A stretch of 64,000 bases of DNA from Synechococcus sp. PCC 7335 (GTDB taxonomy: Bacteria; Cyanobacteriota; Cyanobacteriia; Phormidesmidales; Phormidesmidaceae). The stretch spans positions 62,001 to 126,000 of the forward strand of contig NZ_DS989904.1 of the NCBI RefSeq assembly GCF_000155595.1, read 5' to 3'. The position numbers and the translations under genes are program-made. Positions 15,972 through 41,730 of this stretch are shown here, piece by piece. Below the pieces are notes generated by a model that was given only the letters and a program-made list of their open reading frames with translations, ran no database searches and was not told where the DNA came from. Numbering within the stretch: the stretch's first letter is position 1; each line of letters starts with the position of its first letter.

Positions 15972-16106
15972 CTTTATCTCATCTTGGAAATGATCTTAAT
16001 GTTCAGAAATGAGCTTAATGTTATGAGAAGTGCCTGTTCATGATTATCTTGTTCGTGTTGCCATCCAACGGGAACTAGACTTTGCTTCGACCCTTGCCAT
16101 TCGCCC

Positions 16107-16495
16107 GCAGGGATAGTTCAAGCGTTTCCAGAACTCCGCTGTACCTTTGGAGCCCGCTCAACTGTTTTAGATATTGCTGTTTTTGGTCAGAACGCATTCC
16201 GTGTGATCTCGATGGACAGGTTTCAAACTCATTCAATCTGCCGCCAGATTGGACAATCGAGATTCTCTCACCTAGTCAGAGTCGAACACGGGTGACTCGT
16301 AACGTTATCCACTGCCTTAACTATGGGTGTGAAATGGGATGGATTATAGACCCCGCAGAGTCCTTGATATTCACCTATGGCTTAGGTAAGTCAGTGAGTA
16401 TATTTGAAGACCTCACAGAAGGCTTACCTACACCTGAATCTGCAGCAGCCGTTAACCTGATACCAGGCGATGTGTTTGGTTGGCTGCAGGTGTAG
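16107..16495 (+). pseudogene. Decayed Uma2-family (DUF820) gene
   Basis: Two overlapping frames together give a Uma2 C-terminal half. The first gives IVQAFPELRCTFGARSTVLDIAVF (from about 16107), and the second gives FWSERIPCDLDGQVSNSFNLPPDWTIEILSPSQSRTRV and onward to FGWLQV. The switch falls at the T-run in GCTGTTTTTGG near 16170-16180, where one extra T would restore the frame. The N-terminal half of the family domain is missing upstream. Uma2 proteins have a restriction-endonuclease fold of unclear function and multiply in cyanobacteria. An intact paralogue lies at 41155. Confidence 0.75.
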
Positions 16496-16549: not shown

Positions 16550-16762
16550 TTAGCAGCTCCGACGATGTGCACTTGTCCAGAGAAAGATAGCTACGGTAAG
16601 AGCGGGGGTGATGATCAGAGCGATCGCCACCCAGTTGAGCGCGGAACCTGCCAAACCAGCAACTGGCAGCAGCGGCCCACCAAACTTGATCAATACGCTC
16701 AGAGCTGCTGACGAGACGAGCACTTTTGCTAAGAAGATCAGTGTATCCTTTGTGCTGTTCAT
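16550..16762 (-). CDS. Small two-helix membrane protein, unknown function
   Basis: 70 residues: a short polar start (MNSTKDT), a hydrophobic helix (LIFLAKVLVSSAALSVLIKFGG), a Pro/Gly turn and a second helix (LNWVAIALIITPALTVAIFLWT). It ends in a basic tail. The pattern resembles small cyanobacterial membrane proteins I have seen, but no function is known. An AAGG ribosome site precedes the ATG on the minus strand. It appears to have been the gene directly after prmA before the IsrB element inserted between them. Confidence 0.65.
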   Translation of the reverse strand: MNSTKDTLIFLAKVLVSSAALSVLIKFGGPLLPVAGLAGSALNWVAIALIITPALTVAIFLWTSAHRRSC

Positions 16763-16783
16763 CTTGTTTTACCTTGAGAGACC

Positions 16784-16809
16784 CACGCTATAGCTGCTGG
16801 CTTAGCGTG
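16784..16809. repeat. Subterminal hairpin at the element's 3' end
   Basis: CACGCTA at 16784-16790 pairs with TAGCGTG at 16803-16809 over a 12-base loop. IS200/IS605-type elements carry such terminal hairpins for recognition by TnpA. It overlaps the last codon and stop of the IsrB gene. Confidence 0.6.
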
Positions 16810-17917
16810 CGGAGGGATAAAGAGCTGGTTGAGTGACGCGGGATGCGCCCGAAGCCAGCAGCCCAGTACTTCGCTTCATTAGCTGAACCTTGCTAGCCGT
16901 GAACTGAGCTAACCGCTTCCAATTGCTGTCGCTCACAGAAACTTGCTTAGCCGTGTCACCAGACACCCAGCCAACGAATGACCGACCCGCTTTTTCAGCC
17001 AGTACCAAATCACCTTTACGAAACCCGTGGCGGGTAGTCGTGCCGCCATAGGCTCTGCGAATGCCGCCTTCGCGAAACTGCAACAGGTGAAGCTGACGCC
17101 GCGAAATAGGGGGTCTGCGAATGACAGAAAAAGCAGCAGGGGTAATCGCAACCGCCCCTTTCCACAGTGCCCCATCTGACTTTAGCGAATGCACCGACTC
17201 GTATCTAATAAACTCTGAACTGGCTAGCGCTACCCCATCGACTGCATGAGTCTCAGGCGTTTGGTCAGACTTCTTTTGAGACTTGAACAAGCCCAATGCG
17301 CGACGCAGGTTCGCGGTGTCGTAGCCAAACTTGGTGACTAACTCGCAACGGTTTACTATCTGTTCGAGCATCCAGTTCTGGCCGACCATCACCGGACTAA
17401 AACGATTGTCGCCTTTCGCCTTGACTAGCTCGTACACAACTTTAGAAACTGGGAAGATAGCTTGCAGCTCTTTGAGTACTCGTAACTCAAGTTGACGGTT
17501 CGCTCGAATAGAGGGCGCTACCTTCTTGCTTTTGCGGTTGTCGAATCGCTTTTGACGATGGTTCCTGAACTGAAACAAAACGTTTCGATTAATTCGTCTA
17601 CTTCGCCTAGTCCGACGCATCATCGCCCGAGTCGCCATCCGCTTCCTGACGGTCTCAAAAGGCAAGACCAGATGCGCCATCAAAAGGGTAGCTTTAGCTG
17701 ACTGAACGCCGATGCCAGAGTATTTCTTGCCTGGGTCGATGCCGACTACAACCGATTGAGTTTCGGTGCCTGATGGCTCACCAGTTAGCTGCACATAAAA
17801 CACGCCAACATCTGACCATTGCTTGACGGCTTTTCCTGCCTTTAGCCAGCGCCGCACCCGTGAGGGTTTGGCGGGCATCAAAGGTTGGTGGTTTTTATCT
17901 ACAACGGGAACACGCAT
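16802..17917 (-). CDS. isrB: IsrB-like RNA-guided RuvC nuclease (RRXRR/PLMP, no HNH)
   Basis: 371 residues from the ATG at 17917 (MRVPVVDKN); the longer frame to 18076 runs into the RNA leader. Domains in order: the PLMP/RRXRR domain (QPLMPAKPSRVRRWLKAGKAV, residues 11-31), RuvC-I (VVGIDPGKKYSGIG, Asp61), an arginine-rich bridge helix (about 93-130), RuvC-II (VVYELVKAKG, Glu163) and RuvC-III (ETHAVDGVALAS, His224/Asp227). The C-terminal target-recognition domain includes RRAYGGT, GFRKGD and KVQLMKRSTGL. Only about 60 residues separate RuvC-II and RuvC-III, leaving no room for the HNH domain of IscB, so this is the IsrB form. IsrB uses an omega-RNA to nick DNA. All RuvC residues are intact. 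Confidence 0.88.
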   Translation of the reverse strand: MRVPVVDKNHQPLMPAKPSRVRRWLKAGKAVKQWSDVGVFYVQLTGEPSGTETQSVVVGIDPGKKYSGIGVQSAKATLLMAHLVLPFETVRKRMATRAMMRRTRRSRRINRNVLFQFRNHRQKRFDNRKSKKVAPSIRANRQLELRVLKELQAIFPVSKVVYELVKAKGDNRFSPVMVGQNWMLEQIVNRCELVTKFGYDTANLRRALGLFKSQKKSDQTPETHAVDGVALASSEFIRYESVHSLKSDGALWKGAVAITPAAFSVIRRPPISRRQLHLLQFREGGIRRAYGGTTTRHGFRKGDLVLAEKAGRSFVGWVSGDTAKQVSVSDSNWKRLAQFTASKVQLMKRSTGLLASGASRVTQPALYPSAR

Positions 17918-17924
17918 AAGTGTA

Positions 17925-18159
17925 CTCAGTGAGTTGATATAATCCAGCGCCGAAGCCCTGTGTAAGTCCCTTCCCGCACCAATGTCAGCATGGCTTGCCA
18001 TAACGCAACGCCTAGCGACTTCTAGGCTTAGAGTGAATCCGAACGAGGGAAGTATTCGGAAGTCTGTGACAGACATTGGCTCGGTGCGGTAGTCAACGGT
18101 TTAACTTAGGGATGAGCCCCCCAAGCCCCTGCTATAGCCCGCTAGGGTTTAGCGTGGGT
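17925..18159 (-). ncRNA. HEARO / omega-RNA leader of the IsrB gene
   Basis: The leader upstream of the nuclease folds as expected for a HEARO RNA. A long-range stem pairs CCGCACC+AATGTC (17974-17986) with GACATTGG (18072-18079) and GGTGCGG (18083-18089). It encloses three hairpins: ATGGC/GCCAT (about 17989-18001), GCCTAG/CTAGGC (18010-18027) and TCCGAA/TTCGGA (18038-18060). A further GC-rich TTCG hairpin lies at about 17944-17961 just before the coding region. In this family the RNA is 5' of the gene and its 5' end, read from flanking DNA, is the guide. The RNA ends are estimated. Confidence 0.75.
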
Positions 18160-19116
18160 AGTTGACTTAGGCTTTGCCAGTTCGATTGTCATAGCGCACC
18201 ATTCGTCTTGATAGGTCGTGCCTGTGACTTGCCAACCGCGTGCCGTCAGATGCTCTTCCACCCAGGCGGCTTTACTGGTCAAGATGCCGCAGAGAATGCC
18301 CCAGGTGTGCTCGTTGGCCAGCTCGCTAAGGCGAGGAATGATTAGCCCAACGATAATCTCTGAGAGGATATTGCAAACAATTCCATCTACGGGGCCTGCA
18401 GCCATCTCGACGACTTCGCCGACGCTGCCTAGCCGAATTTGTAATGCTTCTGGATCGATATCGTTCAAGTTGGCATTGTCCCTAGAGGCCCTAATCGCCA
18501 GCGGATCTACGTCTGCTGCGTATACCTGCTTGGCACCATACAGCAAAGAGACAATAGACAAAATCCCCGAGCCGCAGCCAATATCAGCAATTACCGCGTT
18601 TGCTAGCTTTTGTTCGGCCTGTTCTTCTAGCGCCTTCAGGCATAGCTGAGTAGTGGCATGGGCCCCAGTCCCAAAGGCACTACCTGGATCGAGCGTCAAG
18701 ATAGTGCGATCTGTCTCAGGCGGCTCCATCCAAGCTGGATTAATCAGTAGGCGATCGCCCACCTCCTCCGGCTGCCAATGAACCTTCCAGCTGCTAGACC
18801 AGTCTTCTTCAGCAATCAGCGACCAGCTCACCTGTGTCGTCGGCTCTAGGCCCATCTGCACTTCGTCATCGAGGATAGTTTGCCGGAGCGTTTCAAGCGT
18901 TTCATGCTCGAACTCAGTCGAAAGCAAATAGGCTTTCACCACACAGCGAGTGCCCACTTGCTGACTGGCTGTCCCTTTACTTTCTAACTGGGAAAAGTAC
19001 CAGTAAACGCTCTCTTCAAGTGTGAGCGGACAGTCGACAACAACTTCCCACCACTGGTTATCGGTAGGTGCAAAGCTGTTTGGCTGAGCAGCTGTTTGGC
19101 TAGAGGGAAATGGCAT
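18142..19116 (-). CDS. prmA: Ribosomal protein L11 methyltransferase
   Basis: A 324-residue SAM-dependent methyltransferase that trimethylates ribosomal protein L11. It has an N-terminal L11-binding region (WWEVVVDCPLTLEESVYWYF), then DPGSAFGTGAHATTQLCLKAL and the SAM motif VIADIGCGSGILSI. VYAADVDPLAI and VCNILSEIIVGLI follow. The last residues (TTHAKP and the stop) are encoded inside the inserted IsrB element. Without the element the frame would read KSTLSR and stop, so the insertion only changed the C-terminal tip. The catalytic core is untouched and activity should be kept. Confidence 0.95.
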   Translation of the reverse strand: MPFPSSQTAAQPNSFAPTDNQWWEVVVDCPLTLEESVYWYFSQLESKGTASQQVGTRCVVKAYLLSTEFEHETLETLRQTILDDEVQMGLEPTTQVSWSLIAEEDWSSSWKVHWQPEEVGDRLLINPAWMEPPETDRTILTLDPGSAFGTGAHATTQLCLKALEEQAEQKLANAVIADIGCGSGILSIVSLLYGAKQVYAADVDPLAIRASRDNANLNDIDPEALQIRLGSVGEVVEMAAGPVDGIVCNILSEIIVGLIIPRLSELANEHTWGILCGILTSKAAWVEEHLTARGWQVTGTTYQDEWCAMTIELAKPKSTTHAKP

Positions 19117-39686: not shown

Positions 39687-41066
39687 ATGCCTCAGACCAT
39701 CCACCAAGCTGAAACCATCGTGGCGATCGCTACTGCCATTGTCCCTGAACAAGGGAGCGTTGGCATCGTTAGGCTATCTGGGCTAGATGCGATCGCGATC
39801 GCCAAACAGCTTTTTCACGCGCCTGGACGACAGCCTTGGGAAAGCCACCGCATCCTATATGGACATATCCACAGCCAGCAGACCATCGTTGACGAAGCGC
39901 TGCTGCTGCTAATGGAATCGCCTCGCTCTTACACCCGCGAAGATGTCGTCGAATTTCACTGCCATGGTGGCATTATGGCAGTGCAGCAGGTGCTTCAGCT
40001 CTGCCTACAGCAAGGCGCTAGGCTAGCACAACCAGGTGAATTCACCCTGCGGGCTTTTTTGAACGGACGCCTAGATCTTACTCAGGCTGAGAGCGTTGCC
40101 GATTTAGTTGGCGCTCAGTCCCCACAGGCTGCTCAAACGGCGCTAATGGGAATTAGAGGTAAGCTAGCTGAGGTTATTCGTCAGCTTCGTAGTCAGTGTC
40201 TAGATGTACTGGCAGAGATCGAAGCACGGGTAGACTTTGCCGATGATCTACCACCGATCAATGAAGATGACGTGCGATCGCGCCTTCAATCCATTCATCA
40301 TCAGCTCGCCCAAGTTCTGTTGACCGCTGATCAAGGTGAATTACTTCGTACTGGTCTTAAAGTCGCCATCATCGGCCAGCCCAACGTCGGCAAATCTAGC
40401 TTGCTCAATGCCTGGAGCAAAAGCGACCGGGCAATCGTTACCAATCTGCCTGGTACCACCCGTGATGTCGTCGAGTCGCAGCTCATCGTCGGTGGTATCC
40501 CGATTCAAGTCCTTGACACCGCTGGCATTCACGCTGCCACCAACGAAGTCGAAAAAATCGGTATTGAACGCTCATTAACGGCTGCTCAATCCGCCGATCT
40601 CGTATTGCTGACCATAGACGCCACCGTTGGCTGGACAGCGGCAGACCAAGCCCTCTACGAGCAAATCAAAGACACGCCTCATATTATCGTAGTCAACAAA
40701 ATTGACCTGTTAGCTGATAGTCATCCCACCACCCTCCCACTCCCTCACTCCCCCATCGTCCACACTGCTGCTGCCGTCAACCATGGCATCCCCGAGCTTG
40801 AAGCCGCTATTCTCAGTGCTGCTAACGCGGGCGATCTCACCGCTGCTAATACCGACATCGCCATCAACCAGCGTCAAGCCGCCGCGCTTACCCAGGCTGA
40901 TATTGCGATCGCCCAAGTCGAACAGACCATAGCCAATGCCCTTCCGCTTGATTTTTGGACAATTGACCTACGCATAGCCATTCACGCCCTTGGCGAGGTC
41001 ACTGGAGAAGAAATCACAGAATCTATGCTTGATGAGATTTTTAGCCGCTTCTGCATTGGCAAATAG
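39687..41066 (+). CDS. mnmE: tRNA uridine-5-carboxymethylaminomethyl modification GTPase
   Basis: A 459-residue MnmE/TrmE. The N-terminal formyl-THF domain has [10 protein letters not shown] and [14 protein letters not shown]. The helical domain is interrupted by the G domain (about residues 220-375): [33 protein letters not shown] and VVNKIDLL. The C-terminus is the invariant CIGK. With MnmG it modifies the wobble uridine of several tRNAs. The start ATG at 39687 gives the standard length. Confidence 0.96.
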
Positions 41067-41154
41067 CCTTGACGGACATTACCAGCAGACAGAGGTCTGC
41101 GATACACTGTATTCACCGCTTTGTGTTGCTAGCATTTCGTTGTGAAATAGCTCT

Positions 41155-41730
41155 ATGACTGCTCTAACGCTACAGATGCCTCCGTCAACGAAACTCTCGG
41201 ACGAGCAGTTTTATGAACTATGTCGCGTTAATCGTGACATCAGAATTGAGCGTAGCGCCAATGGAGAATTAATCTTGATGCCCCCTACTGGTGGAGAAAC
41301 GGGAATCCGGAACGCTGATATCAACGCTCAGCTTTGGATGTGGAACGAAAGTAAGGGACTAGGCAAAGTATTTGATTCTTCTACTGCTTTTAGGCTTCCT
41401 AATGGAGCCGATCGAGCGCCAGATGCTTCTTGGGTGCAGATTGAGCGGTGGGATGCCTTAACGCCGGAGCAGAAGGAAAAGTTTCCCCCTATTTGTCCTG
41501 ATTTTGTCGTTGAGCTGCGCTCTAAAACCGATCGCCTCTCGGTTCTTCAGGCCAAGATGCAAGAATATGTAGACAATGGCGCCAGACTCGGGTGGTTGAT
41601 CAACCGAACGGATAGTCAGGTCGAGATCTATCGCCCTGATCAGGATGTAAAAGTTCTAATCAACCCTTCGTCTGTATCGGACGGCTCTGTTCTTCCAGAT
41701 TTTGAACTGAAGCTCAAAGGTATTCTTTAG
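41155..41730 (+). CDS. Uma2-family (DUF820) endonuclease-fold protein
   Basis: 191 residues with the Uma2 pattern: LSDEQFYELCRVNRDIRIERSANGELILMPPTGGETGIRNADINAQLWMW, then FRLPNGADRAPDASWV, and the catalytic-type strand FPPICPDFVVELRSKTDRLSVLQAKMQEYVDNGARLGWLI. The D and E-x-K arrangement is that of restriction-endonuclease folds. These genes multiply in cyanobacteria, and their DNA target and role are unproven. A decayed relative of another subgroup lies at 16107-16495. Confidence 0.88.
   Translation: MTALTLQMPPSTKLSDEQFYELCRVNRDIRIERSANGELILMPPTGGETGIRNADINAQLWMWNESKGLGKVFDSSTAFRLPNGADRAPDASWVQIERWDALTPEQKEKFPPICPDFVVELRSKTDRLSVLQAKMQEYVDNGARLGWLINRTDSQVEIYRPDQDVKVLINPSSVSDGSVLPDFELKLKGIL

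What the first reader, a model, noticed from the sequence alone, without database searches (positions are those of the whole stretch)
16781..18159. IsrB nuclease with its HEARO/omega-RNA: a compact RNA-guided system
The protein has the PLMP domain, bridge helix and all three RuvC motifs (Asp61, Glu163, His224/Asp227) but no room for HNH, which is the IsrB rather than IscB form. The leader on the same strand forms a 13-bp long-range stem enclosing three hairpins, as known HEARO RNAs do. Both parts look intact, so this may be a working RNA-guided DNA nickase. No TnpA transposase or second gene is present.
Basis: partly seen in the sequence, partly recalled or inferred. Interest (0 to 1): 0.85.

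Follow-up and report, generated by a model that had tools for sequence, protein, structure and literature searches.

The report
IsrB mobile element beside prmA
A small jumping-gene element in a cyanobacterium-like genome carries IsrB, a known ancestor-like relative of Cas9, with its guide RNA; it is a clear new example of a known kind, with its insertion site and built-in target readable from the DNA.

Summary
The minus-strand ORF 16802-17917 (371 aa) is an IsrB: it aligns over residues 2-354 to a solved IsrB (E 3.6e-46), has the PLMP motif and RuvC residues D61/E163/H224/D227, and no HNH was found. The leader 17918-18166 is its omegaRNA. Its Rfam HEARO score is below the curated cut-off (30.9 against 83 bits), but 28 aligned leaders keep 93.5% of cells paired, with two-sided changes at 37 of 42 pairs.

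The guide is therefore inferred to be the 3' end of prmA (18167-18186) and ATGA its target-adjacent motif, so the element-free junction would be the cognate target. PrmA now ends inside the omegaRNA. Relatives carry other left flanks, so this is a mobile element, not a fixed regulator.

IsrB biochemistry, cyanobacterial orthologues and an isrB-homologue insertion at ATGA in a Microcystis phage are published. Verdict: new member of a known kind, probably functional but untested. Open oddity: the adaptor pseudoknot is not detectable in this copy and its two closest relatives.

The parts
16763..18166 (-). whole mobile element (left end at 18166, right end at 16763; 1404 bp)
   Evidence: empty prmA/next-gene junction in same-genus genome G006 (L019)
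16802..17917 (-). isrB, 371 aa, PLMP + bridge helix + RuvC I-III + C-terminal domain, no HNH found
17918..18166 (-). omegaRNA scaffold (HEARO-like), 249 nt up to the start codon
   Evidence: Rfam RF02033 30.9 bits at 17960-18166; 28-sequence alignment and covariation
18167..18186 (-). inferred 20-nt guide, identical to the 3' coding end of prmA
   Evidence: position next to the left end; 20-nt guide length from DtIsrB (PMC9581776); not shown by RNA data
16759..16762 (-). ATGA, right flank and inferred target-adjacent motif; also the start codon of the next gene
   Evidence: NTGA TAM of DtIsrB in PMC9581776
16763..16801 (-). right-end non-coding 39 nt with the 3' arm of a hairpin CACGCTA...TAGCGTG (its 5' arm lies in the last codons of isrB)
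   Evidence: sequence
18161..18166 (-). stem P1 5' arm GTCAAC (pairs with 18092-18097 GTTGAC)
18072..18089 (-). 5' arm of the 13-bp long-range stem, in two pieces 18086-18089 and 18072-18080 (pairs with 17974-17986)
17974..17986 (-). 3' arm of the 13-bp long-range stem
18046..18050 (-). nexus pseudoknot 5' arm TCCCT (pairs with 17967-17971 AGGGA)
   Evidence: 140 of 140 cells paired in 28 sequences; letters
17967..17971 (-). nexus pseudoknot 3' arm AGGGA
18142..19116 (-). prmA, host gene; its last 25 nt, stop included, lie inside the element's left end
   Evidence: Pfam PrmA 6.8e-72; compared with L019, where prmA stops at the ATGA junction
16550..16762 (-). next host gene, 70 aa, no Pfam hit at E <= 0.001; starts at the right junction

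Best explanation
A non-autonomous IS200/IS605-type (OMEGA) mobile element carrying an IsrB RNA-guided nickase. Shown: the element sits exactly between prmA and ATGA; the protein is IsrB with intact RuvC residues; the leader is a structure-conserved omegaRNA. Inferred: a TnpA supplied by another element excises it as a single strand at its hairpin ends and leaves a scarless prmA-ATGA junction; the omegaRNA carries the last about 20 nt of prmA as guide, because it is transcribed across the left border; IsrB then nicks the non-target strand of that restored junction (guide match followed by ATGA), about 8-11 nt from the TAM as in DtIsrB; repair from an element-bearing copy puts the element back. 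The element is thus retained, and could home into element-free alleles of prmA.
For: IsrB identity. omegaRNA: Rfam; 93.5% of 1163 cells paired, two-sided changes at 37 of 42 pairs, 0 of 500 shuffles reach any of the five measures, slid controls 31-46% paired; nexus pseudoknot 140 of 140 cells. Borders: empty site L019. 28 different 20-nt left flanks in 28 elements. Mobility: 32 of 386 sampled phylum genomes and 5 of 63 family genomes carry it; the four long copies of the own genome fall in four places of the tree. dN/dS 0.13 and 0.09 against the two closest relatives, with dS saturated. Literature: NTGA TAM, nick 8-11 nt upstream of the TAM, and active Crocosphaera and Dolichospermum IsrBs (PMC9581776, passages); a host isrB homologue inserted into phage Mic1 at ATGA with 207 bp upstream and 59 bp downstream (PMC11237433, passages); guided retention/drive reported for TnpB (PMC11870625, abstract only).
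Against: No activity or expression data. HEARO score below the curated cut-off, and lower than in L010 (61.5) and L011 (48.5). In this copy 21 nt separate the conserved TTAT near the leader's 3' end from the start codon, against 4 in L010 and L011 and 4-14 over all 27 other rows. The adaptor pseudoknot SL2:SL5 is not detectable here (best run 3 Watson-Crick pairs, 4 with G-U). No TnpA with matching ends was proven. The G006 empty site differs from the guide at 2 of 20 positions, the 2nd and 5th from the TAM. The window's own right end is not among the 23 pairs; it rests on L019 and on the match to L011. A nick is a weaker driver of repair-based copying than a double-strand break (general knowledge).
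Confidence: 0.75

Rival explanations
1. A decaying copy: the element moved in the past, but this copy no longer makes a functional nickase complex because its omegaRNA or translation start has changed.
For: Lower HEARO score than L010 and L011; first hairpin larger than in L010 and L011 and the longest spacer before the start codon of 28 rows, 21 nt; adaptor pseudoknot not found. One of the three other long copies in the genome, L003, lacks the first 20 residues and a recognisable leader.
Against: Uninterrupted 371-aa frame, all four RuvC residues present, low dN/dS against L010/L011; 39 of 42 stem pairs kept, within the range of relatives, 32-42; L010 and L011 lack the adaptor pseudoknot too, so that trait is not decay of this copy alone.
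Confidence: 0.2
2. A domesticated regulator: the IsrB-omegaRNA pair has been kept at prmA to control prmA or its neighbour, as nuclease-dead TnpB relatives do elsewhere (recalled, not tested).
For: The inferred guide lies in prmA and the omegaRNA overlaps the prmA stop.
Against: No element match in the prmA loci of six other genus genomes, L019-L024; its closest relatives are on contigs other than those with prmA and have other left flanks; RuvC residues intact.
Confidence: 0.03
3. The leader is an ordinary cis-regulatory RNA of isrB (5' UTR) and not a guide RNA.
For: It precedes the start codon on the same strand; in DtIsrB the terminal hairpin holds the Shine-Dalgarno sequence (PMC9581776, passages).
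Against: It matches HEARO end to end (model 1-211), starts exactly at the element border, and has the nexus pseudoknot of tested omegaRNAs (PMC9581776).
Confidence: 0.02

Closest known systems
IsrB (OMEGA nickase), DtIsrB, structure paper PMC9581776; solved IsrB chain 8dmb
   Same: full-length alignment, RuvC residues, lack of HNH, size (about 350 aa against 371), upstream omegaRNA, NTGA-type flank
   Different: this copy lacks a recognisable SL2:SL5 adaptor pseudoknot; activity untested; percent identity not computed
CwIsrB (Crocosphaera) and DsIsrB (Dolichospermum), tested in PMC9581776
   Same: cyanobacterial IsrBs with a TAM of NTG and an omegaRNA
   Different: sequences not compared here; their omegaRNAs are predicted (group B2) to form the SL2:SL5 pseudoknot
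HEARO RNA, Rfam RF02033
   Same: full-length match from model position 1 to 211, same start as the element border
   Different: 30.9 bits against a gathering score of 83
isrB homologue orf2067 inserted in Microcystis phage Mic1 (PMC11237433, passages)
   Same: isrB homologue with 207 bp upstream and 59 bp downstream, inserted at ATGA
   Different: other host and other target gene; sequence not compared here
IscB (NF040563)
   Same: N-terminal half, residues 5-166
   Different: no HNH found; 100.2 bits against the 175 cut-off

Membership tests
IsrB | homology to a characterised IsrB over the whole protein | tested here: met
   8dmb, E 3.6e-46, residues 2-354 of 371
IsrB | N-terminal PLMP domain | tested here: met
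   PLMP at residues 12-15; P12, M14 and P15 in 32 of 34 rows, L13 in 26 of 34
IsrB | RuvC catalytic residues split in three motifs | tested here: met
   D61, E163, H224, D227 identical in 34 of 34 rows
IsrB | no HNH domain between RuvC II and III | tested here: met
   61 residues from E163 to H224; no HNH in Pfam at E <= 1; no structure predicted
IsrB | omegaRNA directly upstream with conserved stems | tested here: met
IsrB | nexus pseudoknot | tested here: met
   TCCCT:AGGGA columns, 140 of 140 cells in 28 sequences; two-sided changes at 2 of 5 pairs
IsrB | adaptor pseudoknot (SL2:SL5) | tested here: inconclusive
   best Watson-Crick run 5-8 in 21, 4 in 4, and 3 in 3 of 28 (the 3 are the window, L010 and L011); with narrower segments 5-8 in 20, 4 in 5, 2-3 in 3; the cross-paired mean is itself about 4
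IsrB | RNA-guided nicking next to a TAM | not testable with these tools
   needs biochemistry; ATGA flank consistent
HEARO RNA (RF02033) | score above the Rfam gathering cut-off | tested here: not met
   30.9 bits against 83; also below it in the 9 relatives hit of 12 loci searched and in the phage copy
IscB | HNH domain | tested here: not met
IS200/IS605-type element | precise insertion without target duplication, next to a fixed tetranucleotide | tested here: met
   empty site and right-end drop-off at ATGA
IS200/IS605-type element | own Y1 TnpA transposase | tested here: not met
   none on the contig; 4 matches on contigs C2-C4, so non-autonomous at best

The most novel reading that the evidence does not exclude
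The window's IsrB belongs to a small lineage (window, L010, L011; tree support 100/98) whose omegaRNA has lost or rewired the adaptor pseudoknot that is needed for nicking in DtIsrB. Here the SL5 loop (AAGUC) would instead pair with the conserved GACUU beside the nexus pseudoknot, a natural change of tertiary wiring among otherwise group-B-like relatives.
Probability: 0.2. Interest if true: 0.45.

Novelty: new member of a known kind. Interest (0 to 1): 0.27.

Why it matters
It adds a well-delimited example of an OMEGA nickase whose target can be read directly from an empty site, and shows an inferred guide written in the coding end of a host gene (prmA) that now ends inside the omegaRNA. Three sister elements without a visible adaptor pseudoknot would test how far omegaRNA tertiary contacts can change.

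Tried and rejected
Rfam at gathering threshold and tRNA search: nothing. Guide targets elsewhere in the own genome: 1 perfect match (self) and 5 with 2 mismatches of 16; forward/reverse hits at up to 3 mismatches were 46/52 against 27/37 for the reversed-pattern control. One of those 5 (L066) is followed by ATGA, with 5 mismatches over 20, which I take as chance. Y1 TnpA partners: short BLAST of the element ends against L013-L016 gave only 10-15-base matches. The right-end resemblance to the TnpA locus L014/L062 comes from a pattern made from those two sequences, so it is only a lead. Group-A rewiring of the window lineage: SL5 loop:GACTT is 5 bp in 3 of 3, but loop shuffles reach this in 149, 156 and 180 of 2000, and SL4 still pairs and covaries with the 3' region, so it is not claimed. 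The order search covered the same 63 genomes as the family search and brought no further member of the lineage. Structure prediction and fold search were not run, because sequence homology to 8dmb already covers 2-354. Altae-Tran 2021 is not held; the 2009 HEARO paper was not looked up, and anything about it is recalled.

Full report
What is there. The minus-strand ORF 16802-17917 encodes 371 aa. Pfam finds only RRXRR (E 8.5e-47). NCBIfam's IscB model matches its N-terminal half only (100.2 bits, cut-off 175), and a weak Cas9d match lies in the same half (20 bits). Against solved structures the best match by far is 8dmb, named IsrB (E 3.6e-46, residues 2-354); the other 8 chains listed are IscBs or an IscB-derived construct, whose best stretches end by residue 156. 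PLMP lies at 12-15; D61, E163, H224 and D227 are identical in 34 of 34 aligned rows, a set that includes some incomplete copies. Only 61 residues lead from E163 to H224, and no HNH model is hit. This is IsrB, not IscB.

The leader. Rfam HEARO is absent at the curated threshold, but 17960-18166 matches the whole model, 1-211, at 30.9 bits (gathering 83; E 1.6e-4 for 701 bases). The whole-genome HEARO search listed another copy (C4) but not this one. In 12 chosen loci, 9 leaders were hit at E <= 0.01, all below 83 bits; the window's own copy (L001), L004 and L049 were not listed. The decisive test was therefore comparative. I handled 34 isrB loci, those that the genome searches had turned into loci, apart from three incomplete ones (L048, L051, L052), the two fragments of the own genome and the genome-contig loci. 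A leader with a recognisable left end was found in 29: 28 were aligned and L041 was left out for a long internal insertion. Five (L003, L032, L034, L053, L054) had no left end that I could recognise. With stem P1 added, 93.5% of 1163 cells pair, 37 of 42 pairs show changes on both sides, no shuffle of 500 reaches any of the five measures, and sliding partners by 1-3 columns drops pairing to 31-46%. P1 was read off the window's row, and the rest came from the consensus of these sequences, which favours them somewhat. The window keeps 39 of 42 pairs; relatives keep 32-42. The nexus pseudoknot described for DtIsrB is kept in 140 of 140 cells.

Exact borders. Each of the 7 genomes of the genus has one prmA match. 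In G006 (L019) the prmA end and the next gene join directly, and the window differs by a 1404-bp insert, 16763-18166. The left border coincides with HEARO model position 1; the right border is followed by ATGA, the start of the next gene. No element sequence matched in any of the six other prmA loci, L019-L024 (BLAST). In the window, prmA lost its own stop and reads 25 nt into the element, to 18142.

A general rule. Of 561 pairs of loci compared beyond the gene, 23 were alike enough. The right ends of loci outside these pairs were not assessed in this way; one (L029) looks to be followed by GTGA. The 28 left flanks (guides) all differ. L011 sits directly before the start codon of a gene whose homologues in six other genus genomes show no element in the 180 bases printed around their starts (by eye). 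This agrees with the NTGA TAM of DtIsrB (TTGA at 60 C) and the NTG TAM of two cyanobacterial IsrBs (PMC9581776; passages read), and with a published isrB-homologue insertion at ATGA in phage Mic1, with 207 bp upstream and 59 bp downstream (PMC11237433; passages).

Spread. 5 of 63 family genomes (E <= 1e-30) and 32 of 386 sampled phylum genomes (E <= 1e-60) have it, the own genome counted in both. The own genome has 4 long copies plus 2 fragments, and the four fall in four places of the protein tree. The window groups with L010 and L011 (100/98), which lie on contigs other than those with prmA in their genomes. This patchy pattern means mobility. dN/dS is 0.128 and 0.087 against L010 and L011, with dS saturated, and 0.079 between L010 and L011, so the protein has been under purifying selection. 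No TnpA match is on this contig; 4 lie on C2-C4.

How it most likely works. Shown: the protein and RNA families, the borders and the flank rule. Inferred: the guide is 18167-18186, transcribed across the left border, possibly from the prmA promoter; after excision by a TnpA in trans, the restored prmA-ATGA junction is the perfect target; the nick favours restoration from an element-bearing copy. Guided retention of this sort is reported for TnpB (PMC11870625, abstract read), not for IsrB in what I read. The G006 allele differs from the guide at 2 of 20 positions near the TAM.

Against a working copy. Its HEARO score is lower than those of L010 and L011; its first hairpin is larger than theirs, and 21 nt lie between the TTAT of the leader end and the start codon, against 4-14 in the other 27 rows. 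The adaptor pseudoknot (SL2:SL5), whose disruption abolished nicking in DtIsrB (PMC9581776), is not visible in the window, L010 or L011: best Watson-Crick run 3, against 5-8 in 21 and 4 in 4 others (narrower segments give 20 and 5). A run of 4 is itself near the cross-paired mean of about 4, so only the total is telling (147 against a cross-paired maximum of 130 in 500). An alternative SL5-loop:GACTT pairing exists in all three, but shuffles reach it in 7-9%. I leave this open.

Novelty and score. IsrB, its omegaRNA, its TAM and cyanobacterial orthologues are in print, so this is a new member of a known kind. Two searches joining IsrB, IscB and cyanobacteria, and HEARO, Arthrospira and noncoding RNA, found no paper with all terms; a looser one found the Mic1 paper. 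The held library is partial. That the host is a cyanobacterium is my inference from its relatives. In checking this report I corrected three statements (the state of L002, the spacer lengths, the count for the 13-bp stem) and left the odds as they were.

Noticed in passing
L070 (Microcystis phage LMM01, NC_008562.1 149611-154696), 1676-1800 and 3060-3160: Seven Microcystis-phage or MaMV cyanophage records (five genomes by name, two of them in duplicate records) carry an isrB at 55-56% identity; LMM01 has an omegaRNA match (27.4 bits), several partial left-end copies in a row just upstream (by eye), and a right end followed by ATGA.
   Followed up: partly
L062 1490-1535 (G000 C4, TnpA locus L014): The right end of a Y1 TnpA locus resembles the window element's right end (hairpin, then GGGAGTCCCCTTAAGG); a candidate trans-acting transposase, but the pattern was made from both sequences.
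   Followed up: partly
window 16082-16495 (+): A short ORF matches only the C-terminal part of the Uma2 family (positions 89-154 of 172), possibly a gene remnant.
   Followed up: no
G000 contig C4 (156 kb): 40135-41256, 110715-111803, 130989-132011: Three further long isrB copies and two fragments lie on one 156-kb contig, with two Y1 TnpA genes.
   Followed up: no
L066 (G000 C1:1680089-1680104, minus): A chromosomal site matches the 16-nt guide with 2 mismatches and is followed by ATGA; probably chance.
   Followed up: partly
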